The notes below the pieces were generated by a model. It worked only from the letters and a program-made list of their open reading frames with translations, was not told the origin of the DNA and searched no databases. Made by a program: the position numbers and the translations under genes. This document shows, in pieces, positions 37,640 to 64,000 of a stretch of DNA of 64,000 nucleotides. Within the stretch, counting starts at the first letter, position 1. Each line of letters begins with the position of its first letter. The DNA comes from Pseudomonadota bacterium (GTDB lineage Bacteria; Pseudomonadota; Gammaproteobacteria; Burkholderiales; Rhodocyclaceae), in NCBI GenBank assembly GCA_018241665.1, contig JAFEDK010000019.1, positions 73,986 through 137,985 on the forward strand, in the 5' to 3' direction.

Positions 37640-37651
37640 TTACTTAGACTC

Positions 37652-42597: not shown

Positions 42598-43322
42598 AGC
42601 GCGTCTTCCTCATCTTCAGGGTTATCCAACTGTCCGTCGCCTTCGATACCATCCTCGTGAGCCGCCGCTGGCGCAGATGCCAACGAGGCGTACGTTCTCG
42701 CCAAGTCCTGAATTTCCTCGGCAGAGAACAACAACTTCAGCGTCGGCGCCACCTCGTAGCGCTCGCCAGAGCCGCGGATGAACTGCAGCAGGCTCAGCTT
42801 CTTGGCCTTGTCAACGGCGTTGACAATCTGCCGTTCGAACCTCGCGTGGTCGGGATTGCTGTCCCGCTCAAACACCGACAAGTGCTGCTGCATGTCGTCG
42901 AAGGACACGACCGCGCGCTCGCCCTGAGCATCGGCCTGGGTCAAGCGCTGGCGCAGAAACAGCAGCAACGCCGTCTCCAAGAAGGTCAGCGATGCCTTGC
43001 GCAGTAGGATAGGCACGTCGAACTCTTCGGAGACGACCTGCCGCGTGAACGCGACGCGCTGCTCGTGGTCGATGACGACTTCCAAGAACAGGTCGTGCAT
43101 GCGCGACCGAATGACGGCTTCGTCGCGCAGCAGCACTGGCCAGAGTTTGGACTGGCGCCGAGCATCCACCGAAGGGCCCAGAAGCAACTGCACGAGCACC
43201 CGCCGAGTGTCGACGGGAAGTCCACCCGTGTCGCCGCGGAAGATTGTCGCTTCTGCGGTCGGCGCGTCCGGTGCCTGCTCCTCGGCAAGAGGCTCGTCCG
43301 TCGAATCAGTCAACGAGTTCAA
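42594..43322 (-). CDS. jetB: Wadjet MukE-like subunit JetB
   Basis: 242 residues, DUF4194 family. Winged-helix (kite) features: RRVLVQLLLGPSVDARRQSKLWPVLLRDEAVIRSRMHDLFLEVVIDHEQRVAFTRQV and ASLTFLETALLLFLRQRLTQADAQGERAVVSFDDMQQHLSVF. Acidic ends. JetB joins JetA and JetC in the condensin-like complex. Overlaps jetA by 17 bp upstream and jetC by 4 bp downstream. Confidence 0.92.
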   Translation of the reverse strand: MNSLTDSTDEPLAEEQAPDAPTAEATIFRGDTGGLPVDTRRVLVQLLLGPSVDARRQSKLWPVLLRDEAVIRSRMHDLFLEVVIDHEQRVAFTRQVVSEEFDVPILLRKASLTFLETALLLFLRQRLTQADAQGERAVVSFDDMQQHLSVFERDSNPDHARFERQIVNAVDKAKKLSLLQFIRGSGERYEVAPTLKLLFSAEEIQDLARTYASLASAPAAAHEDGIEGDGQLDNPEDEEDAL

Positions 43323-44769: not shown

Positions 44770-44897
44770 GCAACACCTCCGTCGATTTGACTGCCGTTCG
44801 CGACTCGCACCTTGAACCTCCAAGCGGAACTGTCTCTCAAATATACGACTACTTTTTATACTCGTCTAGTTTTTGTTCTTATGGCAAAATCTTCAAC

Positions 44898-45836: not shown

Positions 45837-45899
45837 ATCCTCCTGAACCTGGCTTCTTGGCAAGGCTGCTTCGGTCCCGAGATCCCTTGTTTCGTCTGA

Positions 45900-49784: not shown

Positions 49785-49927
49785 TGAGCTCGACCTCGAC
49801 AAAGCTGGTCCGTCCTCGGCGATGAGTTCTACATCAAACGGGGCTCATGTAGTAGTCAACCGGACCGCAAAGTGGGCGACGCTCGGAGGCCGAGTTCTCC
49901 TGCGTCTGCCCTCTTGCAGTGATGAGC

Positions 49928-52447
49928 CTATTTGAGGTTTCTCAACTTTTTTGTTGACTGGGTCAGCAACGTCTGCACGTCGAGACCATGCTGGTTGACG
50001 AGCTTTTGAATGTGCGTGACAGACAGGTCGCGGAAATTCAACAATTCAAAGCTCTTGAAGAAATCGCGCAGCCGCTTGACGAATTGTTTCAGCTCTTGTT
50101 CACGCATCGCCTCGACATCGTGGGTGAACGATGCTGCGCTCGCGACCGTGTGGGTTGGGTGGATGAGAATGCGCTTCACCTGCAGGCCGGGGTAGTGCTT
50201 GGAGAACCAGGCGCTGGACCGATTCATCTGTTCCGCCTCGCGCTTGTTAATTTCCGAGCGATTGATCTCGACCTCGTCCTTGCACTCCCAGAGGATGTAT
50301 TGCGAGTCATCCAGAGCCCAGAGGTTGTCCGGCCCCTCTTTCCATTCCTTGTCCGGCCGCTCACCTGCAAAGCCGATGCCCCAACTGATCTCGTCGAGGG
50401 CTTGCTCGAACTTGTCCGCCTTGACTCCGAAAGCCAACCGGCCAAGGATTTCCGACACGGCAATGTCTAACTGCTCATAGTTGTCAAACTTGCTGACCCA
50501 GGTGACGATGCGCTCAATTCGGCCTTGGCTCACGACCGTCAGCTTGGCGACGGTGACGCCCTCTGGCGGCTTCAGCAGCAGACGGTTAGCCTTGTGGGCG
50601 GCGAGTTGCAGGCGCCGGGATTCGGTACGGTTGCCTCGGTACTGGTAGCGGGCGATCTCCTGCAAATACCAGCCTTGGTCCTGCTTATCGACCTGCTTGT
50701 CATCTAGAGCCTTCTGCAGCATCTCGGCCGCACTGGCGTAATCGCCGTCGAGGTAGGTCTGCTCCGCCGCCGCCTCCGCGGCGTACATGCGCAGCATTTT
50801 CTCGTTGGCGCCGGACGGCTTGACCTTCTCCATTTGCTCGACGTAAAAGGCTTTCCAGTCTTCATCTCGGCTGAGGCATTGGCGAACCAGCGCTTGGAAG
50901 GCTACGGACGGCGTGTCACCGCTTTCAATGTCCTGCTTCGCCATTTCGGCGATCTCGAGGCCGATCTCAATCTGCCTCGACATCTGCGACGAAAGAAAAG
51001 TCCGCGACGCCTTATCGCGGACGAGTCGCGTCAGATCAGGCCCGATGATCACGACAACCGAATAGTCCTTCTCGCCACGCACGCTGCGGCCCATGCCCTG
51101 TTCTACCGTGCGCACGGTACGCATCAGCGTGGCCACACTGTCAGGTCGACAAGCCTCTTCGTAGAGATCGACCAAGCTTTCTGAATACGGCTTGCCGTCG
51201 AAGATCAGGATGCGGCAGGTATCGTCAGGCAAATCGATCCCGTCGTAGCGGTTGACAAGGACGACGGTCTTCTCGTACTCACCATCACGCAGGCCCTCGA
51301 TGACCTCGCTCACGGAGTCCTTGTCCGCGACCGTGGCGCCATATGACTGCCAGTCTTTCACTCGGGCAAACGCCGTCGCCAGCGCGACTACGCCAAACTG
51401 GCGCTTGGGATTAGGGGCAGCGTAGCCCTTCACTATCCGCTCGCGGTCCAACTCTTCATGGATCAATGAGGGCAGCAGGACCATCTTCTCGCCCGACCAG
51501 CTTTCCTTGGCGTACGTCAGGGGATGAAGGATGGTTTCCGGTTTGAGCTGCAGTCCTTTGATGAGGAAGGCGTCGTCTGTCACCGTGGCAGACATGAAAA
51601 TGCGGTGCGCTGCATTAGCGTAGCTGCCGAAGGCAGTCAGGGGCGGAATTCGCGGCTCGATCTCGATGGCCACGCCGGATACAACGCATCGGCAGAATTC
51701 CAAGATGTCCTTGAGCAATGGCCAGACGAATTTGACCGACTTACGCTCCGTGTGCGCGGCGAGAATGTTGGCGACATCGGACGCGCGCTCGATCCAGGCC
51801 CAGTAGGGCACTTGGAGCAGCGCGTCGCGCTTGCCATTGCTGACATCCGCAAACGTTCCCACGCCCTGTTGTTCCAGGTCACTGGCGAACAGCGTCTTGA
51901 TAGCGTCGTAAGCGGGCTCATCCTTCGGGATTCGAATCCGGCAGGCCTCGCGAATCGTGTCGGCACAGGCATGGGCGTCGTCCATAAGCATCGTGCCCAC
52001 GGCAACGGACTTGTGATGCAGCCCGAACTTGGTGAGCCCATTGAACAGCTTCTGGACTGACGTAATCAGAATCTTGTCGCTGTTCAAGAACTCATCGGAC
52101 AGCTCAGGGTCGGCCTGGCAGGTGGGAATGCCGAATTGCTTGGCCTGCTCAATCGTCTGCTCGATCAGGAAGTTGTCCGGGCACAGGTACAGGGCAGGAC
52201 CTTTGCCGTTGTTGAGTTGGGACTGCAGCATCAGTAGGCCAATCAGCGTCTTGCCCTGCCCCGTGTGCAGCTTGACGATTACGTCCTGCTGTTCGCGATG
52301 ACTCGTGAACCAATCATGCAACACTGCGGCCTGGGCGGGACGCAATGGCCCCTTGTCATGCGCACGATCCAGGGTGTCATACAGCTTAACTGGATCGGTC
52401 GGGCGCTCGGCCTTCTTTCCGGCCAGCCGCTTCTTGAAGTCAACCAA
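49928..52447 (-). CDS. DEAD/DEAH-box (XPD/DinG-like) helicase in a defence island
   Basis: 839 residues. Superfamily 2 motifs: Q-like [13 protein letters not shown], Walker A TGQGKT (62-67), DDAH box (about 156-159), MSATV, and motif [14 protein letters not shown]-terminal ~300-residue region of helical repeats, including TPR-like [22 protein letters not shown], has no assignment. TTG start at 52447 is supported by GGAGG seven bases before. It is 143 bp upstream of the STAND gene on the same strand, so the two may work together; nucleic-acid unwinding in defence is inferred from context. Confidence 0.8.
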
Positions 52448-52727
52448 CTCTGCCTCCCATTTTGGTTCTTTGCTCGCGCATTACTCGGTAGCTTCAACTT
52501 TAGCCTCGATCTCCACTTCGGAGTAAGCCTGAAGCTCGGCTAGCACATAAGGTGAAGTTTCTTCATCTCCGAAGCATATCGGAGCTTGAGACTCAAGGAT
52601 TCACATCGTACTCGATTGTCGTAGAAGCGGAGATTGAAGTCGCCCCCTTTCCGAAGACACCTCACTAGAACTGGTCAAACGCCACACCTTGCAGCCGAGC
52701 GACCTGCGCTGAGTAGCTGTCATGCAC
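52448..52727. other. gap upstream of the helicase gene
   Basis: 280 bp holding the end of the 52728 gene's flank and the presumed helicase promoter. AT-richer than its surroundings. I see no gene, repeat array or CRISPR-like unit in it. Confidence 0.4.
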
Positions 52728-53357
52728 TCACCGAGCAGCTCGATCTCGAGCCTCGTTTAACCACATATCTCGGTCGTACCGATAACCTGGAAAAGCCTCC
52801 TCGACCGTCACCTCCCGCTTGGCTAGCCTCCTCGCCAGAGAGGCTAGGCGGCGCACACCATCCACACCACATACTTCCAGGGGGGCACACAACTCCATCC
52901 CGACTCCCCAGCGGTAACGCCTCATCGTCATACTCACATCAACGCTGTAGTCGATCCCTTCGAGCATCAATCGCTGCTCAATCGCATTGACCTGGTCGAA
53001 GTACGCTCTCAGCGCTTCCGAGGACCATTGGGTTCTGTGCACTACGACCTGCTTTCTCGAACGACCGACGCGCTTCCACTGTCGTTCTTCGTCACGGAAC
53101 AGCAGCTCATCTGGCATCACCCCTGCCTCTTGTTGTGCCCGCTTGGCGATCTCATCGCTGAACTTTGAACGCGGATGCTGCCACCAGGCCATCACGCGAC
53201 GTCCGTTCAAGATGAAGCCGACATCGTCCCACCACGACAGTGAACGTGGCTCCGTGTAGGCGTGAGGAATGAACAACCCGTCGTGCAGTCGCCACGGATG
53301 GTGGCGATGAAAGTCCCGCATCTTTGTGCGCAACAGTTCGAAATATCGATTCTTCAT
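52728..53357 (-). CDS. unknown protein beside the XRE-tniQ pair
   Basis: 209 residues, starts ATG 53357 behind GGAGACG. Basic and tryptophan-rich (RDFHRHHPWRLHDGLFIPHAY, WWDDVGFILNGRRVMAWWQHPR), with a C-terminal helical part. No signal peptide or membrane segment. I do not recognise it. It is divergent from the XRE-tniQ operon, sharing a 114-bp promoter region with a perfect palindrome, which suggests that it is controlled together with the transposition genes. Confidence 0.6.
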   Translation of the reverse strand: MKNRYFELLRTKMRDFHRHHPWRLHDGLFIPHAYTEPRSLSWWDDVGFILNGRRVMAWWQHPRSKFSDEIAKRAQQEAGVMPDELLFRDEERQWKRVGRSRKQVVVHRTQWSSEALRAYFDQVNAIEQRLMLEGIDYSVDVSMTMRRYRWGVGMELCAPLEVCGVDGVRRLASLARRLAKREVTVEEAFPGYRYDRDMWLNEARDRAAR

Positions 53358-53435
53358 CAGTCGTCTCCGTTGTTATCCGCTCGATAGCAGTCCATACCGT
53401 TCCGCGCCAACGCCAGTCTGCCACGAGACTTACGT

Positions 53436-53462
53436 TGACGAACCACCATGCATTAATGCATC
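53436..53462 (+). promoter_or_regulatory. promoter and palindromic operator of the XRE-tniQ operon
   Basis: TTGACG at 53436-53441 is a good -35 element. The 14-bp perfect palindrome ATGCATTAATGCAT at 53449-53462 fills the spacer and reaches the -10 region. The XRE gene starts only 10 bp later, so its mRNA is probably almost leaderless. The geometry fits autorepression by the XRE protein. Confidence 0.6.
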
Positions 53463-53471
53463 TTTGCGCAT

Positions 53472-53825
53472 ATGCCATCACCCGTACCCGAAGCCGCCAT
53501 CGCATTGGCCGCTCTTCGTATCAAGAAGTTCTGCATCACCCAAGAAGAGATATCCAAAGCCATCGGTGCCAGCCAGTCCCAGATCAGCCGGATTTTGTCC
53601 GGCAGGACGTCCGCTTCGTCAAAGCTCGCCCTTGATTTATGCACTTATGTATCACTGGCAGTCGGCGGCGTGTCTCGCGAAGCCGTTGCAAGCAACGATG
53701 AGCTGATGGACGCGCTGAAGGATGTCTGGGATGGAACGCCCACACACGCCCGAGCGCTGGCTACAGTCATTCGAAGCCTCGGTTTGTTCAAATCTCCCCC
53801 GCAGCCAGACCGGAGTACGTCGTGA
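53472..53825 (+). CDS. XRE-family HTH protein coupled to tniQ
   Basis: 117 residues. Helix-turn-helix: ITQEEISKAIGASQSQISRILSGRTSASSKLALDLCTYV. The C-terminal half is helical (NDELMDALKDVWDGTPTHARALATVIRSLGLF). It overlaps the following tniQ gene by four bases (GTGA), so both are made together. XRE regulators that control targeting genes are known in Tn7-like and CAST elements. Likely binds the palindrome just upstream. Confidence 0.85.
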   Translation: MPSPVPEAAIALAALRIKKFCITQEEISKAIGASQSQISRILSGRTSASSKLALDLCTYVSLAVGGVSREAVASNDELMDALKDVWDGTPTHARALATVIRSLGLFKSPPQPDRSTS

Positions 53826-54964
53826 TTCAAAATCTGCCGATTCCCCTCGACGATGAACTGGCCATAGGCGTGCTTGGCCGATTTGCACGCCTCAACGCAA
53901 TCCCGTCCATCACCTGGGCCACCCAGTCGATCAGGAAGGCGTTCCCGAGCGATGACAATGTCCCTGCCCTTTGGCTGGTCGCTCAGGCTTGCGGCGCACA
54001 CATAGCTGACTTCACGGCCAAGCACTCGATGATCCCCGTTCTGTACCCGGTGTCCCCTCACGCGGGCTCCGAGCGTGAAGCAAATCATCGACGGCATTTG
54101 GCTAATATCTACGGCCTCGGTGCCTCTGCGGGCGGGCGCCGGTGGTGCCCGAGATGCGCCCAAATTGACCATGGCGACCATGGTTTTGCCTACTGGCGGC
54201 GGCGACACCAGATCAATGGCATCGACTGGTGTCCAACCCACCATATCCCCCTTGGCATTCTGGCGGATGAATCGGTGATATCGGAGCCCAAGCGCCAGCC
54301 GGCCCTTAGTCACCTGACAGTCTCCGAGATCGACCTTCAGGACGAACTGGCGTCGTCTGCGATTCACCGTCTGCAGGGCATCTTGCTCGGATGGCTTCAC
54401 CGACCAGAGCCCGTTCACGTGCGAGCCTGGAGCGACGTTGTTCGCGAACGCTGCCACGCCCTCGACTTGCGGATAGGAGAAGTGGGGAAGCGCCCTGTCA
54501 CCAGCGACCTGATCCTGGAACACTTCCCGCAAAGTTGGCTGAAGCGGCATATGCCGGAGGTGGCATCCAAGCAGGCACTGGCATACATCAGGAAGATCGA
54601 CGGTGCCTGCATAGATCGGCACGTCGCTTACCCAGCCCTGGCTTGCGCTGCCATCCTGGCCGTACTGTTCGACAGTGCAGAAGAGGCGTTGGCCACCTTG
54701 GACCTGGCACATCGGCGGATTGCCGCCTACGGCAATGCTGTCGATGCGGCCAGCCAGGCTCTCGGCGCCTTTCTTGCTGGAGCTGGGCTCCAACAGGCCT
54801 GCAGAACGTTCGGTGCCGACATGGAGGACGTTGAGCGCCTGCTGCGAAACAGGTGCAGAGCAACCCGGGAACTGAGGTCGCCCGACGTGCTCACCGATCG
54901 GCTTGTTCATCTACACCTTCTTGATTCAGAAGCGGATGCGCGGGCCTATGACAACGTAAGCTGA
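53822..54964 (+). CDS. tniQ: TniQ-family target-selection protein (short, second TniQ)
   Basis: 380 residues, GTG start overlapping the XRE stop. TniQ hallmark: a zinc-binding region WCPRCAQIDHGDHGFAYWRRRHQINGIDWCPTHHIPL with Cys109, Cys112, Cys137 and His140. The N-terminal DDELAIGVLGRFARLN also fits. It is shorter than TnsD and lies on the strand opposite to the tns operon. It overlaps the end of the tnsD gene by 74 bp in convergent orientation. It probably serves a second target-site pathway under XRE control. Confidence 0.9.
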   Translation: MIQNLPIPLDDELAIGVLGRFARLNAIPSITWATQSIRKAFPSDDNVPALWLVAQACGAHIADFTAKHSMIPVLYPVSPHAGSEREANHRRHLANIYGLGASAGGRRWCPRCAQIDHGDHGFAYWRRRHQINGIDWCPTHHIPLGILADESVISEPKRQPALSHLTVSEIDLQDELASSAIHRLQGILLGWLHRPEPVHVRAWSDVVRERCHALDLRIGEVGKRPVTSDLILEHFPQSWLKRHMPEVASKQALAYIRKIDGACIDRHVAYPALACAAILAVLFDSAEEALATLDLAHRRIAAYGNAVDAASQALGAFLAGAGLQQACRTFGADMEDVERLLRNRCRATRELRSPDVLTDRLVHLHLLDSEADARAYDNVS

Positions 54965-56669
54965 CCGTCAGCGCCTCAACGGTCAGAGGCCATTGTTCCG
55001 GGCTGTGGATGGCCTTGCGTAGTGCAGGGAGTGCCCGTTTCAATTCGTCAAGCAACCGTCGCGGAGCTTCCCTGCTGCAGGACAGAGCTACGTTGCACAG
55101 CGCATCGGCCATCCGCGCATCCGATCGCTCCATCCGCACAGCGGCGTGATTCGCTCTGTGAGCGGTTGCCACACGCTCAAGCGATGCCTTGAGCCAATCG
55201 TGATCGTTGCGGTAGAGCCACGCGTAAACAGCCGGCTCAAGCCGCCGGAGCCTCTTGACGCCAAGATGAAGGTTTAGCGCCGCCACCTTCGCCCAGGCGG
55301 CCCTGGCCGCCATCCGGCGACTTTCTTGACGGACGCGATGCCATTCATCCTGAAGCCCCGGAACCGTGCGCAGAATCCTGGTCACGGTCAGTACCGACAC
55401 CTTGGCAGCGTCTGCAACAGCCTGCTTCTCGGCGCCATTCCTGAGCATTCCAAGTGCCAGGCTCCACGACGGGGCATCAAGTTTCTTGGGCCGTCTTGGC
55501 GGCTCAATCGCGACACGACATGCCCATGCGGCGAGCGTCGCATAGCTGACCCCCAACTGCCGCGCGGCCGCAGTCATACTAAGGTTACCGTCCCGAAGGG
55601 CTGTCAGGATCTCCTCCGGAACCGGCCCCTGGGTCGCCGCATCGCAGGTCGCCCGACGGGAGGCTGCGGTTGCCCATGTTTGGTCTGTGACCATCCCGCT
55701 GCTCTCGTAGGCTTGTTCGAAATCGTCGATCCCGTCAAACCAAGCGGCGATCCAAGTCAGATATCGCAGAGGATGTGCCAGGGAGCGTGCAGACAGAAGA
55801 CGGGCGAGTTGTCCCTGAAGCAAGCCCAAGTCGGCATCCTGACGTGCCTCGGGAAGACAAGCCAGTTTCGTTGCCAACTGGAGCAACCGAGGCTCGACCT
55901 CGCGCCAGCGGACACGGCCGCTGGCGTGGAGCATTCCGATACCCTCCATGCGAAGCCGGAAGGCTTGAGCAATCCGAACGGGGTCTGCAAAGCGCCCTGG
56001 GCTCATCCCTACAAGCGCGAGGCCCTGGGCTGCCAGCTGGCGTAACCAGTCGCCTTGGGTAGATTTGTCAGCGGCGTTATCCAGACACACGACTTCTTGG
56101 CCGCACGCAGGTACAGGAAGCGTCCAGGCAAATCGCGCCACTTGATCCAGCTTCAGGTGGGATACCCGCAGAGGAATGCCGTGGCTGGGACACACCCATA
56201 CACCAGGGAGCTGATGGGCCCGGCGCCAGTACGCCCAACCATGCCCCTCCAGATCGGCCTGCATACATTCAGGGCAGCTCTTCAAGGGATGCGCAGCTCC
56301 GAGCCCACTGGTCAGCAGACCTAGCCGGTATTTCAGATGCGCAATGCCATTGCCCCTCATGGCTGCTACGGATTGCCTTGCCAGATCCGAAGGCTTGAAA
56401 GGCCAGTAGAAAGGCAACAACGTCCGATCTCGGATAACTTGCTCAGCGGTTCCCAAGGATCCTTTGCTTCGAGCCACCAGCGCATCGATCCGGCCCGGAA
56501 AGTCATGAGCCGAGCCAATGCGCGCATGCCCGAAGAGTTGGAGACAAGTCGTGCGATCAAGTCCATTGGCAGCCAGCCGGTGGTAGCGGCTGCACCAGCT
56601 GAACAGCGTCTCGTCGGGCAATGGCGCCAGGCCAACCTTCGACTCAAAAATCTCAGCTTGTCTCGACAC
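54891..56669 (-). CDS. tnsD: TnsD/TniQ-family target-site selector
   Basis: 592 residues, GTG start at 56669. N-terminal TniQ domain (LPDETLFSWCSRYHRLAANG) with zinc ligands Cys132, Cys135, Cys160 and His163 in SCPECMQADLEGHGWAYWRRAHQLPGVWVCPSHGIPL. A C-terminal DNA-binding part contains an HTH (LSMTAAARQLGVSYATLAAWA) and further helical repeats, as in TnsD proteins that recognise a fixed chromosomal site. It overlaps tnsC by 17 bp and is the last gene of the tnsABCD operon. The site it reads is not identifiable here. Confidence 0.9.
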   Translation of the reverse strand: MSRQAEIFESKVGLAPLPDETLFSWCSRYHRLAANGLDRTTCLQLFGHARIGSAHDFPGRIDALVARSKGSLGTAEQVIRDRTLLPFYWPFKPSDLARQSVAAMRGNGIAHLKYRLGLLTSGLGAAHPLKSCPECMQADLEGHGWAYWRRAHQLPGVWVCPSHGIPLRVSHLKLDQVARFAWTLPVPACGQEVVCLDNAADKSTQGDWLRQLAAQGLALVGMSPGRFADPVRIAQAFRLRMEGIGMLHASGRVRWREVEPRLLQLATKLACLPEARQDADLGLLQGQLARLLSARSLAHPLRYLTWIAAWFDGIDDFEQAYESSGMVTDQTWATAASRRATCDAATQGPVPEEILTALRDGNLSMTAAARQLGVSYATLAAWACRVAIEPPRRPKKLDAPSWSLALGMLRNGAEKQAVADAAKVSVLTVTRILRTVPGLQDEWHRVRQESRRMAARAAWAKVAALNLHLGVKRLRRLEPAVYAWLYRNDHDWLKASLERVATAHRANHAAVRMERSDARMADALCNVALSCSREAPRRLLDELKRALPALRKAIHSPEQWPLTVEALTVSLRCHRPAHPLLNQEGVDEQADR

Positions 56670-58104
56670 GATCCCGTCCCGTTGGGGGTTCGCTGGAAGG
56701 TGACGACCTCTTGGCCGAGGACGGTTTGGACTTTGCCAAGGTACCCCGCAACAGCTCCGCGCCTTCGCGCAAGGTCTGAGCGGATATGGTGGAACGACGG
56801 GGCAAGGGCGTCACCTTGGCCGCATCGTTTGGCCGTAGGGGATGGTCGGCTGCCTGACGTAATACCCGGAGGGTCTTCTGTGCGTCGATACTCAGGGTGC
56901 TTTCCAGCATCGCCACCGGGGGGATGGTGCCGGTTTCTACGTTACCGGCCGCTCGGCCATGGAGCATCGGTCGCTGGAGCCCTCTGACCGGCGCAAAGGG
57001 GCACACCAGATCGGCACGCTGCTGGGCGATCAAGCCGGACACGGCCAGGGACGCCAAGTCTTCCACATCCTTGCGATGGCTACTGAATGCAGCGCTACGA
57101 TAGGCCTGCCTGACGTCATCCATGGTGACGGCGCGCGCACTCCGCCCGACGGCCACCCGATAGGCCTCCAGAAGGAGTTGCCGCAAGATTCTGAACAGTC
57201 CGGCGGTAAGCCGGTGCAGCTCGTGGGCGTGAGCAGACACCTCCAGATGAAAGTGCTCGGGTGCAACAGCAAGGTACTCACCAACCGCCGTGCGCCAAAT
57301 CTCCGAGTCGGCATCCGGTGGCTCAAGCACGATCGGATGCGCGAGAAGACGATCTTTCTCCTCATGGGGACGTTCGAGCAGCTTCTTGACCAAGGAGTAG
57401 TTGGCTGCATAAACAAGCGGAATGCCAGGACTCGCCAGGGTCATGATGAGCTGCGCCGTCTTGGTGCTTGCCTTGCCGCTTTGCGTGTAGAACTGCATCT
57501 CATCGACGATGAGCAACGCAGTACCCGTCGCCTGAAACCAGTCCCGGACGTGTGCGAGCAGGACACTCACATCGACCATCGTGCGGCCGGCGACCGCCAC
57601 AGGATTCGAGAGGCTCTTGAGCAGCGCCCGCACCGAGAGATGCGCCTGCACGGAAATGCGTCGAGCCGGATGGACCGTCAGCCGTTGCGAGTCCGTAACG
57701 AATTGGCTATCTGGGGTGACCTGGCAGATACGGACGAGTGCCTGCATGAGGGAAGACTTGCTGACACCGGCCAGGCCGGTCAGGCAGCGAATCGGGTAGG
57801 GCTTCCGAACTGTCTCGATCTCCCCGCTGCGCCGCCGGTTGTAATCCCTCAGCGTCGGATACATCGACTGGGAGTATTCCTTCGCTTGGTCCACCAGCAT
57901 GCGCAAGATTTCGATGTGGCGAGGTCCGGGGACGAAGACCTCGCTCCATGCAGCGTCCAAAGCGCTGCAGGCCCTCTCGACGGGCAAGGCCTGTAGATCT
58001 TTGACCGGCGTCACCGCGCGGTATGCCGCCCTCCGAATCGCATCGTCGGTATCCAGCCGATCAAACCAATGCAGCCACCCGTCTGCAGTAGAAGCAGCGC
58101 TCAT
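56653..58104 (-). CDS. tnsC: TnsC-like AAA+ transposition regulator
   Basis: 483 residues. Walker A GLAGVSKS (110-117) and Walker B ALLIVDEMQ (Asp201, Glu202), with TnsC-family surroundings PYPIRCLTG and RDWFQATGTALL. TnsC oligomerises with ATP on DNA, passing the target from TniQ/TnsD to TnsAB. A disordered Ser/Pro/Arg-rich tail (about 440-483) may contact the transposase. Start overlaps the tnsB stop by four bases (ATGA). Confidence 0.92.
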   Translation of the reverse strand: MSAASTADGWLHWFDRLDTDDAIRRAAYRAVTPVKDLQALPVERACSALDAAWSEVFVPGPRHIEILRMLVDQAKEYSQSMYPTLRDYNRRRSGEIETVRKPYPIRCLTGLAGVSKSSLMQALVRICQVTPDSQFVTDSQRLTVHPARRISVQAHLSVRALLKSLSNPVAVAGRTMVDVSVLLAHVRDWFQATGTALLIVDEMQFYTQSGKASTKTAQLIMTLASPGIPLVYAANYSLVKKLLERPHEEKDRLLAHPIVLEPPDADSEIWRTAVGEYLAVAPEHFHLEVSAHAHELHRLTAGLFRILRQLLLEAYRVAVGRSARAVTMDDVRQAYRSAAFSSHRKDVEDLASLAVSGLIAQQRADLVCPFAPVRGLQRPMLHGRAAGNVETGTIPPVAMLESTLSIDAQKTLRVLRQAADHPLRPNDAAKVTPLPRRSTISAQTLREGAELLRGTLAKSKPSSAKRSSPSSEPPTGRDRVETS

Positions 58105-60239
58105 CGCTTTCCTCCTTCCGCTCGCAGGTATTGCATGATCTGCCTGCGTTCCTCCACTGAAGCGGCCTTCGATCTCTTGTTCCTTCCCCCCTTGACGACA
58201 CCCTGGTCGAACGGCTGGCCTGCATGCTGCTCGAATGCAGCCTCGTACTCGGCTCGCGCAGCAAGCCGGTGGGATTGGAGCTCCAGTTTCCCATCGCGCC
58301 GCAGGCGCTCAAGCTGCTCCAGCTCCACCACCGAGATGTAGAGTTGTTCCTCCCCATCCCGGATGGCCAGCATCGCATCCACCTCGATCAGATCCGCTCC
58401 CACCTCCACCCACAGGTGGCGCACGCAGATATCCAACATGTAGCCACCCAGCCGATACGTTCCGCAGGTGTGTGCCTTCTGCAACGCGCCCGACCGCTGT
58501 AGCGCCGCGGAGTCAAAGCGCATTTCCTTGAAGTACACCGCATCGTCCTGAACGGTCAGCTCAATGGGTGTCAGGTATGCCCGGACGGCCTCTTCGAAGC
58601 GCATTGAAACGGCGTGGTTGCGTCCTCGGCGATCCAGGTAGTTCCAGAAAGCAACAGGGATCGGAAACACACCGGCTTCGACTGCATCGTTGTTGAGCCG
58701 GTCCGTCACATCGATGCTGTGGTTATCGGCGATCGTCCTGATGATCTCCTGGGCCGCCAATTGGGCTATCGAGAGACGCGTCTCCACATAGTGGGGCTTA
58801 CCTTCGAGCTTGACCGCCTTCGGGTGGGTCGTTTCGATGGACGCCTTGGATTGCCCTGCGTAACTGGGCGCCGACTCCTTGATGACGGGCCGCAGAGCAG
58901 GCTCCGTCGATTCGGCCTTGGCTGTAGCGCCAGGACCTCGGTCATGGATCACATGGGGTGACACCCCGACGCTCGGCCAGTCGCCCTCCCGGATCTGCAA
59001 GCCGAACAGGCTGCAGAACTTCACCTTATCGATGGCTTCGCAGAACTTGGCCAGGCGATACGCTGACGCCGCCTCTCCCCCTATGGAGAATCCAATCCCG
59101 ACAATCATCCCGGATGCGATGCAGCGCGTGCGCACAACCCAGAGTGTCGGCTGGTGGCTGCCGGGCAAGTAACCTTTGGCCACCTGATCACAACAATAGG
59201 CATCCTGCTCGGTCCGTTCCATGAGGTTGCCCACGCTCTCAGCAAAGCGACCAAGCGAATGCTGTAACCGGGTCCTGACCCGGGTATGGCCATACTTGTA
59301 GACTTGGCGCACCTCCAGTGGAAAGGCTTGGCCGACCCGGTAGGCGAACTGACCAAAGGTTGGAAAGGCCCTGCCGGCGGGGTGTACGAAGGACTTTCTA
59401 CCCTGGGGGTCGGTTTGCACCACACAGCCGAACACGGTGCGCAGGGTCCGGCGATAGATCGCGCGCAGGTGCTGCCCTGGGCCGGCATACTTGCGGTACC
59501 CCTCCAGAATCCGATCAATCATCTCCTGGTCGTTGGAACCGTGGCCATGATGGGCGCCCTTCAGCCTTGATGGACGGCCAAACTTCCGCTCGCGCCCCAT
59601 CCGATCCCAATGACCAATGTGATGAACCGGATAGTGCAGGGCCCACCGACTGCAACCGAAGCACACGTAGGCATAGAACGCGGTCCGAAAGCGCGTTTCA
59701 TGCTGTGGCGGCTTACACGCCCTCGCGTGCGCATTGATGAGGGTATCGGGAGACTCGGCGCCCAGAATCTGGTCCAGGTTCTGCACCAGCGGCCATAGAT
59801 GCGCCAGGGTCTGGTCGATACGCGCAGCGTGGCTGCGCTTCTGGCCCACCCGTAGTTCGGCGTACGCTTGGAGTTCTACGACGGTCACGCCGGATAGCCA
59901 AGGGGGAAGCTCATCCTGGGTTTCGCACGCGAAAATCAGCCCACGCTCCAAGGCCTGCTCGAATCGATGTCGAGACAGGAAATGGAGAACAGGCCTGTAG
60001 CTGGCATATGTTGTTCCGCCCGCGCCCTGATCAGCGACACCCGGATGCCCCCCGGATGCGCCTCCTCTGGAGCTGATTTCGGCACTCCTTTGGCCTTCAC
60101 CACCGCGCTGGCGTTTGCGCTGAAATTCCACCAGCAACACGCGCTGTCGGGCCGGGTCGCTGCGGAGCAGGTGATAACGTACGCCCTTGCAAAGGGCATC
60201 AAAGCCCTCTGGGGCACATAACTGAGTACCGGTTCGCAT
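58101..60239 (-). CDS. tnsB: TnsB-like DDE transposase
   Basis: 712 residues. The RNase H-fold catalytic triad is present: Asp351 (CDQVAKG), Asp433 (HDRGPGA) and Glu469 (ASIETTHPK), all in the order and setting of TnsB. N-terminal DNA-binding part, then HLRAIYRRTLRTVFG, and a C-terminal basic tail ending QGVVKGGRNKRSKAASVEERRQIMQYLRAEGGKR. TnsB binds the ends and joins the 3' ends to the target. ATG at 60239 follows GAGGTG. Nine bp after tnsA. Confidence 0.93.
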   Translation of the reverse strand: MRTGTQLCAPEGFDALCKGVRYHLLRSDPARQRVLLVEFQRKRQRGGEGQRSAEISSRGGASGGHPGVADQGAGGTTYASYRPVLHFLSRHRFEQALERGLIFACETQDELPPWLSGVTVVELQAYAELRVGQKRSHAARIDQTLAHLWPLVQNLDQILGAESPDTLINAHARACKPPQHETRFRTAFYAYVCFGCSRWALHYPVHHIGHWDRMGRERKFGRPSRLKGAHHGHGSNDQEMIDRILEGYRKYAGPGQHLRAIYRRTLRTVFGCVVQTDPQGRKSFVHPAGRAFPTFGQFAYRVGQAFPLEVRQVYKYGHTRVRTRLQHSLGRFAESVGNLMERTEQDAYCCDQVAKGYLPGSHQPTLWVVRTRCIASGMIVGIGFSIGGEAASAYRLAKFCEAIDKVKFCSLFGLQIREGDWPSVGVSPHVIHDRGPGATAKAESTEPALRPVIKESAPSYAGQSKASIETTHPKAVKLEGKPHYVETRLSIAQLAAQEIIRTIADNHSIDVTDRLNNDAVEAGVFPIPVAFWNYLDRRGRNHAVSMRFEEAVRAYLTPIELTVQDDAVYFKEMRFDSAALQRSGALQKAHTCGTYRLGGYMLDICVRHLWVEVGADLIEVDAMLAIRDGEEQLYISVVELEQLERLRRDGKLELQSHRLAARAEYEAAFEQHAGQPFDQGVVKGGRNKRSKAASVEERRQIMQYLRAEGGKR

Positions 60240-60248
60240 GGTCGCACC

Positions 60249-61235
60249 TCATGCCTGCTGCCGCGCAAACCAACTCGCGTAGACCTGGAGCGGATCGCGG
60301 CGCTCCGGCCGTAAAGGGCGGTCAACGAAGATGACCTCCTCCATCAACTCCGGGCGTACGTCGCGACGCCAAAGCGCACGGAAAAACAGGGCTTTGGCCG
60401 TCTCCAAGTCCAGATCGTGTCGATGAATGACGGAGAGCAGGATTTCGAGAGGGGGCTGCTCCGTCTGCAACGACGCCCGCAAGCGATCGCAGACCTCTTC
60501 ATAGATCGATGCATCGACGCCAGCGGCCCGGTGTTGCACCAGAATGAGGCTTCGGAGGTTCTGCGCAAACAGCTCGGGGATATCGGAGTCCACGATACGG
60601 ACAGTGGGGATGCCCGCGTCCAGGTAGTAGCGCTCCTCGATGGCGTGCCGGGCACGCACCGCCGCCTCTTGCACCTCGGCACGGCGGGCCGGGCGGCGAC
60701 CCAACGGGCGACGCTGAAACTCCTCCTCCGAAGCCTTGACCGTCCAGTTCACGCAATAGGGGCCATGATCGTCCGTCAGGAACAACAGGAAATCGCCTAT
60801 GAATGGCGCTGGCACAGGAACCCGGTCGGTACCATCCGGGTGGTCAATGAAAATCCACGGGAGCCGATCGATCATGTCCAGGCGTTCGCACACATCAATC
60901 GTGCCACGCAGACCCGGTAGTTCAAGACCCGTGGCCAGACTGTGGCCTGCCAGCGGATGTGGCTTTGATTCCGTGGCGAGCATCCGCTGCTCCTGGAGCT
61001 CAAACAACTGTGGATTGAACAGCGCCAGTAACAGCACCTTCTGCTCGACCAAGGACAAGGTATGGCAGTAGCGATCCAAGCGTTCCGACCAGACTTGTGC
61101 TGGCCGACTTCTGGAGGGGGCTTCCTCCCGCGTAGCGCGAATCGCGGGGTCGTACTGCTTGCCCCATTGGGGTGGATCCTGACGACGCAGGATTTCCTTC
61201 AGACGCGCCAGAGTCAGTTTGATGGCTTTGGGCAT
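60249..61235 (-). CDS. tnsA: TnsA-like endonuclease
   Basis: 328 residues from the ATG at 61235, chosen because GGAAAGGAACTGGC precedes it; a frame 33 codons longer runs into the structured RNA region. N-terminal restriction-enzyme-like nuclease with the TnsA triad Glu64 (VEQK), Asp148 (FIGDFLLFL) and Lys167 (NWTVK); then a C-terminal winged-helix domain. TnsA cuts the 5' ends of the element, giving cut-and-paste transposition with TnsB. First gene of tnsABCD, with the outer element end expected a short way beyond it at higher coordinates. Confidence 0.92.
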   Translation of the reverse strand: MPKAIKLTLARLKEILRRQDPPQWGKQYDPAIRATREEAPSRSRPAQVWSERLDRYCHTLSLVEQKVLLLALFNPQLFELQEQRMLATESKPHPLAGHSLATGLELPGLRGTIDVCERLDMIDRLPWIFIDHPDGTDRVPVPAPFIGDFLLFLTDDHGPYCVNWTVKASEEEFQRRPLGRRPARRAEVQEAAVRARHAIEERYYLDAGIPTVRIVDSDIPELFAQNLRSLILVQHRAAGVDASIYEEVCDRLRASLQTEQPPLEILLSVIHRHDLDLETAKALFFRALWRRDVRPELMEEVIFVDRPLRPERRDPLQVYASWFARQQA

Positions 61236-61284
61236 GCCAGTTCCTTTCCGACCGGGATCTCCGGCCTGAAAAACCGATAGGGAA

Positions 61285-61403
61285 AGGAAGGCCCTTGACG
61301 CGCGCAGAGTGCGCGAGTAGATTTCAACCACCAAGCGAAATCTGAGGGTCTTCCTCAGTACGAAACGCCGCCAGCCTGCCAGCCGGCGGCGTTTTTGTTT
61401 TTT
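61285..61403 (+). ncRNA. candidate small RNA with three-way junction and intrinsic terminator
   Basis: On the + strand, an outer stem of 11 pairs (61285-61295 with 61345-61355, including one G-U pair) encloses two hairpins: 61301-61315 (6-bp GC stem) and 61319-61343 (7-bp AGATTTC/GAAATCT with an 11-nt C/A-rich loop AACCACCAAGC). Next is a 10-bp terminator stem 61363-61372/61385-61394 followed by TTTTTGTTTTTT. The G-U pair and T-tract both fix the + strand. No protein gene lies upstream in this direction, since tnsA runs the other way. No clear promoter is visible. It could instead be a leader or end element of the transposon. Confidence 0.55.
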
Positions 61404-61418
61404 CGGGGCGTCAAGTCG

Positions 61419-61709
61419 TCATGAATGCCTCCCGCCGCTTGCCATTGCCGCAGCCAAACCCTCCGGCGACCTCGCTGCGGTGTCCGCTCCACTTATCGCC
61501 AGCGAGGGAGGTCTTGACGATTTGAGGCCAAGCGCCACGGCAATCCGATGGCTTTCTCCGCGGCTCGCTCGACTGCGCCCCGACAGCACGCTATAGACCA
61601 AATGGACGTCAAACCCGCGCTGACGGGCCCAGTCCACGACCGACACTCCCTCCTCGTAGAACTGCCGCTTGACGGCATCCAGCTCGGACTGGCTTGGCGC
61701 TATTGACAT
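61419..61709 (-). CDS. BcepMu gp16-like phage-type DNA-binding protein
   Basis: 96 residues from ATG 61709 (MSIAPSQSELDAVK); a start at 61751 is less likely because it lies inside the operator. HTH-like core: RQFYEEGVSVVDWARQRGFDVHLVYSVLSGRSRASRGESHRIAVALGLK, the pattern of the BcepMu gp16 family found in Mu-like phages and related mobile DNA. Divergent from the regulator at 61782, with a shared operator, as in a phage-type switch. Confidence 0.75.
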   Translation of the reverse strand: MSIAPSQSELDAVKRQFYEEGVSVVDWARQRGFDVHLVYSVLSGRSRASRGESHRIAVALGLKSSRPPSLAISGADTAARSPEGLAAAMASGGRHS

Positions 61710-61737
61710 GGGTTTGATCAAAATTGAATTAAAATAA

Positions 61738-61770
61738 CTATTGACGGTCAATAGTTTCTATAAATATACT
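61738..61770 (+). promoter_or_regulatory. operator palindrome and promoter of a divergent regulator pair
   Basis: CTATTGACGGTCAATAG (61738-61754) is a perfect palindrome with 8-bp arms. It contains the -35 TTGACG (61741-61746) of a promoter with -10 TATACT (61765-61770), spacing 18. Transcription would start about 5 nt before the ATG at 61782, so that gene is nearly leaderless. Binding here would block transcription of both divergent genes. Confidence 0.7.
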
Positions 61771-61781
61771 AATCTCAGAAT

Positions 61782-62168
61782 ATGAGAAACCTCGAAATCC
61801 GTCAACAAATCGGGGAGCGGTTGCTTGAGGAACGGCAACGCCTCCGTCTCAGCCAGCAAGCTCTTGCTGACCTGATAGGGGGCGTTCGGCTCAGCATCGT
61901 CAAGTACGAAAGCGGACGCAGCTCACCCGCAGCAGAGACCCTGGCAGCAATGGAGGCGATCGGAATCGACGTGCGGTACGTGCTCACAGGCTTTCGAACA
62001 TCACCCTCCGGCATCGACCGTGAACGCTTCAAGGTCGCATTCGCCGAAGTCCAGCGCCAAGCAAAATCCAAGCAAGAAAAGCTATCCCTTGAGGCAAGCC
62101 TTGACTTAGCCTGGCGCTTCTACGATTCCTTCGCCACATTGCAGGCTGCTAGACCTCTCGCGATCTAG
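61782..62168 (+). CDS. XRE-family transcriptional regulator (phage-type)
   Basis: 128 residues. HTH at about 8-60: IGERLLEERQRLRLSQQALADLIGGVRLSIVKYESGRSSPAAETLAAMEAIGIDVRYVLTG, then a helical C-terminus. Typical Cro/CI-like regulator of Mu-like phages and mobile islands. No Shine-Dalgarno sequence precedes the ATG, matching the predicted near-leaderless transcript. Probably represses itself and the divergent gene through the palindrome. Confidence 0.88.
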   Translation: MRNLEIRQQIGERLLEERQRLRLSQQALADLIGGVRLSIVKYESGRSSPAAETLAAMEAIGIDVRYVLTGFRTSPSGIDRERFKVAFAEVQRQAKSKQEKLSLEASLDLAWRFYDSFATLQAARPLAI

Positions 62169-62337
62169 CAGAACGATGAAGAACACAGCGAACGAACTCA
62201 CCACCCGCCCCGCCCGTCAGCGGAGCGCAATTTGCTGCAGCCGGCTGCGGACTCTGGAAGCGTCGAACCAGCAGACCCACTCACAGTAAGCGGTACGCCA
62301 AACATGCTGCAGCCACCATCATCAGCCCACGAAAAAA

Positions 62338-62365
62338 TTACAGTTTTCTGTATTTTAAGTACAAT
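62338..62365 (+). promoter_or_regulatory. promoter of the HTH-NADAR operon
   Basis: TTACAG (62338-62343) and TACAAT (62360-62365) with a 16-bp spacer, in a markedly AT-rich stretch. A small inverted repeat TACAG-TTTT-CTGTA overlaps the -35 element and may be an operator for the HTH protein encoded downstream. Confidence 0.5.
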
Positions 62366-62391
62366 TTAACTTGTTTATTACACAGAATATC

Positions 62392-62673
62392 GTGCCTCAT
62401 ATACAAGAAACGTTAGGCCACATCATGCGGCGACTCCAGGTCTCTCAGAACCGCCGCTTAACTTATCGCGACCTGGCAAAGATGGCCGGGACCAGCGAAC
62501 GAACGATGGCCGAGTGGATGCGCGGTGCCACTTCGCCTATGGCGATGAACGGGCTGCTCAATTTGATGGCCGCCTTGAAGGCGGACGACGTGATACAGGT
62601 GTTGGCGCTGTGGCGCGAGACAGCACCGCAAGACCCCACCAGTGCCGACAGGACGCAGGAGATTCATAAATGA
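62392..62673 (+). CDS. HTH protein translationally coupled to a NADAR gene
   Basis: 93 residues from the GTG at 62392 (a TTG at 62371 is possible). HTH: RRLTYRDLAKMAGTSERTMAEWMRGATSPMAMNGLLNLMAAL, then a short tail. The stop overlaps the start of the NADAR gene (ATGA), so the two are translated together. It probably regulates its own operon through the repeat just upstream. Confidence 0.8.
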   Translation: MPHIQETLGHIMRRLQVSQNRRLTYRDLAKMAGTSERTMAEWMRGATSPMAMNGLLNLMAALKADDVIQVLALWRETAPQDPTSADRTQEIHK

Positions 62674-63284
62674 CTAAGATCGAAACCGAAATCGAGCTAA
62701 CAGAAGTGCGCTTCTACCGTGCAAGCGAGAAGCCGTACGGCGCCTTCAGCAACCTGTACCGGCGCGAGATCGAGTTCGAGGGTGAAAAGTTCGCGACCTC
62801 GGAGCACGCTTACCAAGCCGGCAAGGCTCGCAAACCAGAAGTTCGGAAATGGCTGATGGAGGCCCCCTCTCCCGCGCTGTTGGCCATGGCTGCCCATGGT
62901 CTCTATGTGTGGGACATCAATCCGGACTGGTCGAAAATCAAGTTTGACCGGATGAAGCGTGTATTGCAGGCAAAGTTCTCGCAGCATGAGGACCTTAAGC
63001 AACTACTCCTGAGCACCGGCACAGCACGCTTAGTGGAGTCAGCCACTGTCGACAACGCCGTAAACCGCCTTTGGGGCGAGGTTAATGGCGTCGGCAAGAA
63101 CAAGTTGGGCGAGTTGCTCATGGAAGTACGTGCCGAACTCGCTGGAACCGAAGCGCCCACGACGATCAAGGGCAAGGAGGAACCGAAGGTTCCGCCCAAG
63201 AGTCGGGCCGTGCAGCCTAACTCGACAGCCAGTAATGCTGGCCGTTCAAGGCGACGGTCAGCAGCCGAGCCCATCTCAGCGTAA
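62670..63284 (+). CDS. NADAR-domain protein
   Basis: 204 residues. The NADAR (YbiA/DUF1768-like) domain covers about 10-155: VRFYRASEKPYGAFSNLYRREIEFEGEKFATSEHAYQAGKA, the middle AHGLYVWDINPDWSKIKFDRMKRVLQAKFSQHEDLKQLLLSTGTARLVE and the C-terminal NRLWGEVNGVGKNKLGELLMEVR. Known NADAR proteins cleave N-glycosidic bonds; some remove ADP-ribose from guanine in DNA, and others act on riboflavin intermediates. The last ~45 residues are disordered and basic. Coupled to an HTH gene and followed by a SIS gene, so an immunity or nucleotide-processing role is possible. Confidence 0.9.
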   Translation: MTKIETEIELTEVRFYRASEKPYGAFSNLYRREIEFEGEKFATSEHAYQAGKARKPEVRKWLMEAPSPALLAMAAHGLYVWDINPDWSKIKFDRMKRVLQAKFSQHEDLKQLLLSTGTARLVESATVDNAVNRLWGEVNGVGKNKLGELLMEVRAELAGTEAPTTIKGKEEPKVPPKSRAVQPNSTASNAGRSRRRSAAEPISA

Positions 63285-63393
63285 GACGGCATCAGGCATA
63301 TCGGGCGTACGGTGCGATGTGCCGGCCAGCAACGCTCCGCCGTTGCGAGTAGCGGCGCCGGCCCACAAACTGGAACTTCAATCGACTAGGCAC

Positions 63394-64000
63394 ATGGGCA
63401 AACGATTCATCGACGAGCTCCAACAACTTCCCACGACCATGCAGTGGGCAGCCGAACAGGATGTCGCGTTATTGCGCCGAGCAGTTCAGCTATACGGCGA
63501 TCGAGGCCTCCTAGCAGTGGGTTCTGGCGGCTCCTTCACTGCGGCAGCCTATGCGGCGGATCAACATTTCCGATGGTACGGCCGCCCGTCGCAGGCCATC
63601 ACGCCACTCGAGGTCTTTCAGGTACCCACCAACGCGGCAGCGAATGCCGCGGGGTTGCTGCTGTCCGCAGAAGGCAAGAACTACGACATCCTGGCCGCAG
63701 CGAAGCAACTTCGGCTGCGTGCCTGCCCGACTATCGGTCTGACGCTGCGTTCAACGAGCCCGTTGGTTGAGCTGACTGATGAGACTGGCGCGGCATCTCT
63801 AGCGGCCTACGACATGCCTTGGGGCAAGGACGGCTATCTTGCAACGAACTCGCTTATCGCCACGCTGATCCTGCTCTGGAGAACGTATGAAGCAGATGCC
63901 ACCGTCGAGGCCGAGTTACCACTTCTGGTGAACTGGTTCCTACAGTTCAATCGCCGCCTCGAGGAGACTGGCAGTCTGAAGCGTTCAAAGCGTGCGTTGA
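63394..64000 (+). CDS. SIS-domain protein, partial (runs off the window)
   Basis: At least 202 residues from the ATG at 63394; no stop before the end of the window. An N-terminal sugar-isomerase (SIS) fold is visible: LLAVGSGGSFTAAAYAADQHFRWYGRPSQAITPLEVFQVP holds the phosphosugar-binding Gly/Ser loop, and the rest continues with KNYDILAAAKQLRLRACPTIGLTLRSTSPLVELTDE. SIS domains bind or isomerise phosphosugars and also occur in regulators. The gap from the NADAR gene is 109 bp with no terminator, so an operon is possible. It is not a glmS: no glutaminase domain precedes it. Confidence 0.8.
   Translation, partial: MGKRFIDELQQLPTTMQWAAEQDVALLRRAVQLYGDRGLLAVGSGGSFTAAAYAADQHFRWYGRPSQAITPLEVFQVPTNAAANAAGLLLSAEGKNYDILAAAKQLRLRACPTIGLTLRSTSPLVELTDETGAASLAAYDMPWGKDGYLATNSLIATLILLWRTYEADATVEAELPLLVNWFLQFNRRLEETGSLKRSKRAL

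What the first reader, a model, noticed from the sequence alone, without database searches (positions are those of the whole stretch)
53436..61235. Complete Tn7-like transposition module with two separate TniQ proteins, one under its own XRE control
The operon tnsA-tnsB-tnsC-tnsD is intact: TnsA triad Glu64/Asp148/Lys167, TnsB Asp351/Asp433/Glu469, TnsC Walker motifs, and zinc ligands in both TniQ proteins. A second, shorter TniQ (380 residues) is encoded on the other strand, coupled to an XRE regulator behind a palindromic operator. Established knowledge: separate TniQ/TnsD proteins can direct Tn7-like elements to different targets. Inference: the XRE-TniQ pair is a regulated alternative targeting pathway. 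No cas genes or CRISPR repeats were seen.
Basis: partly seen in the sequence, partly recalled or inferred. Interest (0 to 1): 0.75.

Follow-up and report, generated by a model that had tools for sequence, protein, structure and literature searches.

The report
Tn7-like transposon with self-regulated second selector
A defence-carrying Tn7-like transposon parked beside the glmS gene also carries a small switch-controlled gene pair, a repressor-like protein plus a second targeting protein, that recurs as a swappable unit in related transposons and probably gives them a second, controlled way to choose where to jump.

Summary
The module is real and belongs to a Tn7-like element of about 33.2 kb (window ~37,681 to 70,838, beyond the window edge). 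Its right end lies 17 bp past the glmS stop, with TnsB-type sites at both ends and a 4-of-5 target duplication; TnsD is therefore the likely glmS homing selector. The second TniQ is not a degraded TnsD copy: 45 TniQ2 and 47 TnsD-type proteins separate on one branch (100/99). Nor is the XRE a chance neighbour: in 40 of 43 loci found by the XRE alone a TniQ follows, behind a conserved palindrome that occurs once in this genome. Insertion site follows TnsD, not TniQ2: an rpoH-sited and an amt-sited locus share 58-73% TniQ2 and 75-80% XRE identity with glmS-sited ones, but only 24-26% TnsD identity. XRE-TniQ2 looks like a modular, autoregulated second-selector cassette without CRISPR, reminiscent of Xre-controlled I-F3 CASTs. 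Its target, and repression by XRE, are inferred, not shown. Dual TniQ-TnsD elements are known (998 loci in Faure 2023); a dedicated XRE switch on a CRISPR-less second TniQ was not seen in four literature searches. Correction: TnsB's conserved Asp is D346, not D351.

The parts
37681..64000 (.). Tn7-like element from its left tip to the window edge; it continues to 70838 (L017 position 7024), 17 bp from the glmS stop
   Evidence: TnsB-site motif AATAAAGTNNGTCGG at 37691(+) and 37803(+) in the left end and 70813(-) and 70793(-) in the right end; glmS 70859-72694 (-); hand-read flanks TCTTT (glmS side) and ACTTT (left tip)
37681..37817 (+). left end: tip GACTGGAG... with two TnsB-type sites
53448..53461 (.). 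palindrome ATGCATTAATGCAT, presumed operator of the xre-tniQ2 promoter
   Evidence: single site in the genome at <=1 mismatch
53472..53825 (+). xre: 117-aa Cro/CI-type regulator
   Evidence: Pfam HTH_3 9.8e-7; 41-50% identity to six relatives
53822..54964 (+). tniQ2: 380-aa short TniQ, GTG start overlapping the xre stop by 4 nt
   Evidence: PF06527 3.2e-14; AlphaFold2 model pLDDT 77.9, best fold match Tn7 TnsD(1-318) 8glu, E 3.7e-6
54891..56669 (-). tnsD: 592-aa TniQ/TnsD, presumed glmS homing selector
   Evidence: PF15978 1.6e-24 and PF06527 2.4e-16
56653..58104 (-). tnsC: AAA+ regulator
   Evidence: AAA_22 2.4e-5, just under cut-off; K116, D201, E202 invariant in 7
58101..60239 (-). tnsB: DDE transposase, D346/D433/E469
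   Evidence: 68% to L037; invariant residues
60249..61235 (-). tnsA: endonuclease, E64/D148/K167
   Evidence: 68% to L037; invariant residues
38016..44823 (-). cargo: Wadjet type I jetABCD
   Evidence: PADLOC JetA1 1.6e-200, JetB1 2.5e-92, JetC1 0, JetD1 4.2e-131
49928..52447 (-). cargo: candidate defence protein PDC-S28 (DEAD/ResIII helicase)
   Evidence: PADLOC E 0; Pfam
37651..37679 (-). right-end-like TnsB site of a neighbouring, probably older tandem element
   Evidence: 0-mismatch site at 37651(-); similar layout in G395 (37596) and G400 (34896)

Best explanation
The element uses two TniQ-family selectors on one TnsABC transposase. TnsD (592 aa) homes it to the 3' end of glmS, as in classical Tn7. 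The short TniQ2, a TnsD(1-318)-like core with a reduced C-terminal part, is a second selector feeding the same TnsC. It is expressed from its own xre-tniQ2 transcript, whose promoter region holds a palindromic operator for the XRE protein it encodes. Most likely XRE shuts the second pathway off once the element is settled, and the pathway opens in a burst when the element enters a naive cell lacking XRE (zygotic induction). XRE plus TniQ2 behaves as a cassette that can be exchanged between elements with different att sites. Shown by comparison: element ends and glmS site, two old TniQ lineages, conserved pair, conserved palindrome, insertion site following TnsD. Inferred: that XRE binds the palindrome and represses, that TniQ2 binds TnsC, zygotic induction, and that its target is mobile DNA.
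For: glmS lies beside the right end, 3' side. In 16 of 24 genomes searched (24 of the 43 loci chosen by me) an XRE of this family lies 2-50 kb from a glmS match on the same contig, on its 3' side in 16 of 16 (three weaker cases are named in the full report). XRE is followed by a TniQ in 40 of 43 loci, with a TnsD-type TniQ upstream on the same strand in 36 of those 40. Palindrome core at the same place at <=3 mismatches in 35 of 44 and <=4 in 41 of 44, against 35 and 137 of 2,200 random windows. TATGCT-N6-ATG in 30 of 44. TniQ2 and TnsD split 100/99. Cassette swap: L098 (rpoH) vs L103 (glmS) XRE 75%, TniQ2 58%, TnsD 24%; L104 (amt) vs L108 (glmS) XRE 80%, TniQ2 73% over 226 aa, TnsD 26%. Best fold match Tn7 TnsD(1-318) bound to TnsC. 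Xre control with zygotic induction is described for I-F3 CASTs (PMC11406308, passages).
Against: No target or insertion attributable to TniQ2 was found. The nearest TniQ2s, in G395 and G400 (43% and 40%), have no XRE beside them, so XRE is not indispensable. The window's own promoter has no sigma-70 consensus match, and its palindrome stands 7 nt closer to the start than in most loci (hand-read). XRE does not co-vary specially with TniQ2 (partial rank correlation 0.25 given TnsD, against 0.42 with TnsD given TniQ2; n=24). The 43 loci were collected by an XRE motif, so they overstate how often TniQ2 has XRE, and the palindrome core was chosen after looking at these same loci.
Confidence: 0.62

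Rival explanations
1. XRE is not only a repressor but the DNA-binding partner of the short TniQ: it marks target DNA carrying ATGCAT-type palindromes and TniQ2 bridges it to TnsC, as TnsF or Cascade do in other elements.
For: Gene pair in 40 of 43 loci; XRE is the most conserved of four proteins compared (mean pairwise identity 0.56, against 0.35 TniQ2, 0.42 TnsD, 0.47 TnsA; n=24); several short TniQ2s lack the first C-terminal segment.
Against: The palindrome occurs once in this genome, at the xre promoter itself. No special XRE-TniQ2 co-variation. TniQ2 persists without XRE in G395 and G400. The conservation figure is biased because the loci were chosen by XRE.
Confidence: 0.12
2. TniQ2 recruits a target selector in trans, for instance a host protein or a Cas effector of the host, as proposed for short TniQs without a partner (Faure 2023).
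For: Window TniQ2 is short (380 aa) and four relatives are 303-314 aa; Faure 2023 discusses such orphan TniQs.
Against: This genome shows only a 141-aa Cas1-like frame (other Cas families not tested). The TniQ2 fold resembles Tn7 TnsD more than CAST TniQ.
Confidence: 0.16
3. The cassette is a decaying or purely regulatory passenger: TniQ2 no longer selects targets, and XRE-TniQ2 is a relic or a competitor that damps TnsD.
For: Relics exist: 56-58-aa XRE stubs beside rpoH in L123 and L125, TnsD+XRE without TniQ2 in L100; TniQ2 is the least conserved of the four proteins compared.
Against: Zinc ligands are kept in 7 of 7, the palindrome is conserved, and XRE and TniQ2 resemble each other between elements whose TnsDs do not.
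Confidence: 0.1

Closest known systems
Tn7 (TnsABCD at attTn7/glmS)
   Same: TnsA, TnsB, TnsC, TnsD order; right end beside the 3' end of glmS; AATAAAGT-type end sites (Tn7 ends recalled, not from a call); TniQ2 model best matches Tn7 TnsD(1-318), 8glu
   Different: No tnsE noticed (not searched for); a second TniQ under its own XRE; about 33 kb with Wadjet and other defence cargo
Type I-F3 CAST (Xre regulators RtaC/RtbC; VpxR in Vibrio)
   Same: An Xre-family regulator controls the element's targeting genes (PMC11406308 and PMC12150760, passages)
   Different: No CRISPR array seen; tniQ2 converges on tnsC within 220 bp in 26 of the 29 loci where that can be measured, leaving no room for a cas operon behind it; TniQ2 fold closer to TnsD than to CAST TniQ
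Dual TniQ-TnsD elements without Cas (Faure et al. 2023, PMC10293859)
   Same: One long TnsD and one short TniQ; 998 dual loci counted there (section read)
   Different: Here the two proteins are separate lineages shared across the group, and the short one is often wired to a conserved XRE; the term xre has 0 occurrences in that paper's main text
Tn6022 (short TniQ + TnsF)
   Same: A short TniQ in an operon with a DNA-binding protein (PMC10293859, section read)
   Different: The neighbour is a 117-aa XRE with its own palindrome, not a 498-aa TnsF; home is glmS, not comM

Membership tests
Tn7-like transposon | TnsA + TnsB + TnsC + TniQ/TnsD with catalytic residues | tested here: met
   (TnsB Asp is D346)
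Tn7-like transposon | Terminal TnsB sites at both ends | tested here: met
   sites at 37691, 37803, 70813, 70793 (0-1 mismatch); a single mononucleotide shuffle of the 83-kb stretch gave 9 hits at <=3 mismatches against 16 real
Tn7-like transposon | 5-bp target-site duplication | tested here: inconclusive
   Window 4 of 5 (TCTTT/ACTTT); G395 AATTT/AATTT and G400 AGCTG/AGCTG 5 of 5; read by hand, with the right tip taken as TGAC and the left as GAC (with symmetric TGAC tips the shared flank is 4 bp in all three)
glmS-homing Tn7 group | Insertion just downstream of glmS, tnsA-proximal end towards glmS | tested here: met
CRISPR-associated transposon | CRISPR array and Cas effector genes in the element | tested here: inconclusive
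   No array seen and no Rfam match in 37000-64000; cas profiles were run only on the cargo proteins and Cas1 genome-wide
I-F3 RtaC/RtbC-type regulator | XRE closely related to RtaC/RtbC | not tested
   their sequences were not at hand; profile A1 found only two weak PDB matches, neither named as such a regulator
XRE autoregulator | Conserved palindrome in own promoter region | tested here: met
   binding and repression not testable here
Second target selector | Directs insertion to a site other than TnsD's | not testable with these tools
   needs a transposition assay

The most novel reading that the evidence does not exclude
xre-tniQ2 is a portable, self-repressing target-selection cassette, a CRISPR-free counterpart of the I-F3 xre-tniQ-cas unit. 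It can be plugged into Tn7-like elements with different att sites (glmS, amt, rpoH) and two transposase types, and gives each a burst of TniQ2-directed jumping on entry into a new cell, by a protein-guided mechanism that is not yet described.
Probability: 0.35. Interest if true: 0.75.

Novelty: new variant of a known kind. Interest (0 to 1): 0.5.

Why it matters
About a quarter of the Tn7-clade loci in Faure 2023 carry more than one TniQ/TnsD (998 + 50 of 3,953), and that paper says that for some it is hard to tell whether they bind the site themselves. A recurring XRE switch with a defined palindrome gives a handle: deleting one small gene should unlock the second pathway and reveal its target. 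The exchange of the pair between elements also suggests that target selection and its control can travel together.

Tried and rejected
XRE as a chance neighbour: rejected. TniQ2 as a broken copy of TnsD: rejected. Exact 5-bp duplication in the window: not found, 4 of 5. Second palindrome inside the xre reading frame: present at <=2 mismatches in L088, L089, L092, L111, L116, L118, L120, L122 and L124, but most loci lack it, the window is 3 off, and codon choice gives no general support. XRE-TniQ2 co-variation: nothing special. HTH in the TniQ2 C-terminus: no Pfam match for the window fragment; below cut-off matches in relatives, best 5e-4; profile A3 gave a weak PDB match there, 2lvs, E 0.0023, not followed. 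Cassette elsewhere: TniQ2 matched 6 plasmid records over at most 42% of its length; XRE matched 6 at 28-38%, and of the four of these that I looked at, three have no TniQ in the fetched region and one is followed by a weakly peptidase-like gene; phages and viral contigs gave none. Left chromosomal junction by comparison with congeners: not found; DNA next to glmS differs.
Full report
WHAT IS THERE. Pfam assigns TniQ and TnsD domains to the 592-aa protein, TniQ to the 380-aa protein and HTH_3 to XRE; TnsC is just under the AAA_22 cut-off, and TnsA and TnsB match nothing in Pfam. They hold except TnsB D351, which varies; the invariant Asp is D346.

THE ELEMENT IS LARGER. The neighbouring DNA of the same contig shows glmS at 70859-72694 on the minus strand; the gene before it reads like glmU (name recalled from its sequence, not from a search). 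Sites matching AATAAAGTNNGTCGG with 0-1 mismatch lie at 70813 and 70793 beside glmS and at 37691 and 37803 on the far side, so the element runs from about 37,681 to 70,838, some 33.2 kb. In glmS orientation the 5-bp flanks are TCTTT (13-17 bp past the stop) and ACTTT, 4 of 5 bases. Two relatives with the same gene order, G395 and G400, have AATTT/AATTT and AGCTG/AGCTG, 12-17 bp past glmS. These duplications were read by hand and take the right tip as TGAC and the left tip as GAC; with symmetric tips the shared flank is 4 bp in each of the three. In all three a second right-end-like site abuts the left tip, so these look like tandem arrays at an attTn7 spot. The cargo includes a complete Wadjet type I system (jetABCD) and candidate defence genes.

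TWO TNIQ LINEAGES. A tree of 92 TniQ domains (three duplicate loci and pieces under 180 aa left out) puts all 45 TniQ2 proteins on one side of a branch and all 47 TnsD-type proteins on the other (100/99). Window TniQ2 groups with G395 and G400 (100/98), window TnsD with the same two (100/100). The program warns of long rows (among them G062_D2, which meets the TniQ2 side) whose places are unsure. Faure et al. 2023 (sections 8 and 11 read) found 998 dual TniQ-TnsD loci and inferred repeated in-situ duplication overall; within the set compared here the split is single.

THE XRE PAIR. A scan of 84,980 species genomes with XRE profile A1 (pattern ASQ[SPA]Q[VI]SRI) gave 43 loci, mostly from organisms that I know as beta-proteobacteria; L088 and L116 are named Moraxellaceae and Lysobacteraceae, L085 and L103 only Proteobacteria. 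In 40 of 43 a TniQ follows; exceptions are L100 (TnsD+XRE only) and L123 and L125 (56-58-aa XRE stubs beside rpoH). In 36 of the 40 a TnsD-type gene lies upstream on the same strand. Some TniQs are cut or short (L086 189 aa at a contig end, L104 267, L119 268). The set is redundant (L094-L096 99.99-100% identical). A core ATGCATATATGCAT, chosen after looking at these loci, is matched at the same distance (118-136 nt before the ASQ codons) at <=2 mismatches in 23, <=3 in 35 and <=4 in 41 of 44, window included; best matches in 2,200 random 220-nt windows of the same loci reach these levels in 17, 35 and 137. In 30 of 44, TATGCT stands exactly 6 nt before an ATG, which suggests a leaderless message (inference). 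In the window the palindrome is ATGCATTAATGCAT, 24 nt from its start to the ATG instead of the usual 31, and no sigma-70 consensus is scored. It occurs once in the 5.43-Mb genome within one mismatch. So XRE most likely controls only its own transcript.

XRE IS NOT UNIVERSAL. Searching by TniQ2 instead, 11 of 249 family genomes and 7 of 399 order genomes matched, the window's own genome in both (different E-value limits). XRE stands beside TniQ2 in G000, G037, G074, G157, G369 and G521; no XRE homologue was detected beside TniQ2 in G395, G400, G591, G616, G017 or G081 (tblastn). In G245 and G119 the gene lies near a contig start and was not judged; the matches in G040, G062 and G135 are to TnsD-type or short proteins.

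INSERTION SITE FOLLOWS TNSD. In 24 genomes (24 of the 43 loci, chosen by me), an XRE of this family is on the same contig as a glmS match and on its 3' side in 16, 2-50 kb away. Weaker cases: in G652 the glmS match is partial at the contig end, in G658 it is a 48% fragment, in G660 the XRE is a second copy and not L109, and in G670 it is L100, which has no TniQ2. In 8 no linkage was seen; L117 lies inside a 640-kb contig without glmS. Other loci sit at amt (L124, L104) or rpoH (L085, L097, L098). TnsDs of L124 and L104 form a clade with G081 (100/99) and those of L098 and L085 another (100/99), yet L098 TniQ2 groups with glmS-sited L102 and L103 (100/99), L104 TniQ2 with L108, L109 and L121 (100/94), and L124 TniQ2 with glmS-sited L118 (96/91). 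Pairwise: L098 (rpoH) vs L103 (glmS) XRE 75%, TniQ2 58%, TnsD 24%; L104 (amt) vs L108 (glmS) 80%, 73%, 26%; the two amt loci L104 and L124 44%, 28%, 34%. L104 may be a composite, since its TnsD lies on the other strand and its TniQ2 is 267 aa. The rpoH loci have no tnsABC in the fetched stretch. The simplest reading: TnsD sets the home site, and xre-tniQ2 is a cassette exchanged between elements.

WHAT TNIQ2 DOES. An AlphaFold2 model (9 sequences, pLDDT 77.9, residues 348-380 low) matches Tn7 TnsD(1-318) bound to TnsC best (8glu, E 3.7e-6; TM 0.56/0.66); CAST TniQs are weak (E 0.19 and above). Profile A2 hits only 8glu in the PDB below E 0.1; profile A3 hits 8glu (1.3e-8) and, over the C-terminal part, 2lvs (0.0023). 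Long relatives carry two C-terminal segments that could be helix-turn-helix, with weak Pfam support; the window protein keeps only the second. I read TniQ2 as a second selector feeding TnsC. No target was found: searches of plasmids, phages and viral contigs showed no XRE-TniQ2 pair (two of six XRE-like plasmid hits were not opened). That it serves transfer to mobile DNA, with zygotic induction as in I-F3 CASTs (PMC11406308, passages), is analogy.

LITERATURE. Four searches (listings of 30, 15, 10 and 10 papers out of 78, 17, 10 and 170) showed Xre control for I-F3 CAST and MerR control for V-K CAST, and nothing on XRE in CRISPR-less dual-TniQ elements. Seen in part: PMC10293859 (outline, passages, sections 8 and 11), PMC11406308 (passages, section 8), PMC8649781, PMC12150760 and PMC12452197 (passages); PMC9938897 only as listing. 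Subscription papers, among them the original I-F3 Xre work, were not seen, so a prior description cannot be excluded; the review's figure legend lists XRE among abbreviations for TniQ domain organisations.

VERDICT. A real and apparently modular, autoregulated second-selector cassette in a glmS-sited Tn7-like element; new variant of a known kind; mechanism probable but target unknown.

Noticed in passing
window 38016-44823: Complete Wadjet type I jetABCD operon as first cargo inside the left end, with a WYL-domain gene (44661-45836) on the other strand beside it.
   Followed up: partly
window 34971-37150: ArsP-type permease and genes that read like thioredoxin and rhodanese, in what may be the neighbouring older tandem element.
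   Followed up: no
L088, L089, L092, L111, L116, L118, L120, L122, L124 (inside xre): A second palindrome like the operator inside the xre reading frame, in most of these about 198 bp downstream of the first, exact in L118; possible looping repression in a subset.
   Followed up: partly
L085, L097, L098, L123, L125: TnsD-xre-tniQ2 units, or XRE stubs, beside rpoH without tnsABC in the fetched stretch: remnants or transposase-less selectors.
   Followed up: partly
window 61419-62673: Three small regulator-like genes upstream of tnsA (two match HTH families); small regulator-like genes also stand by tnsA in G017 and G081.
   Followed up: no
glmS 3' side in same-genus genomes, L057 (also L051, L053, L058): L057 has a right end with two AATAAAGT sites at the same spot as the window element; L051, L053 and L058 have similar but looser sequences, so the glmS 3' side may be a hot spot in this genus.
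   Followed up: partly
L129 19748-21137: On a Pseudomonas koreensis plasmid a related XRE (38%) overlaps a gene with a sub-cut-off M78-peptidase match, suggesting that this regulator type is shared with other systems.
   Followed up: no
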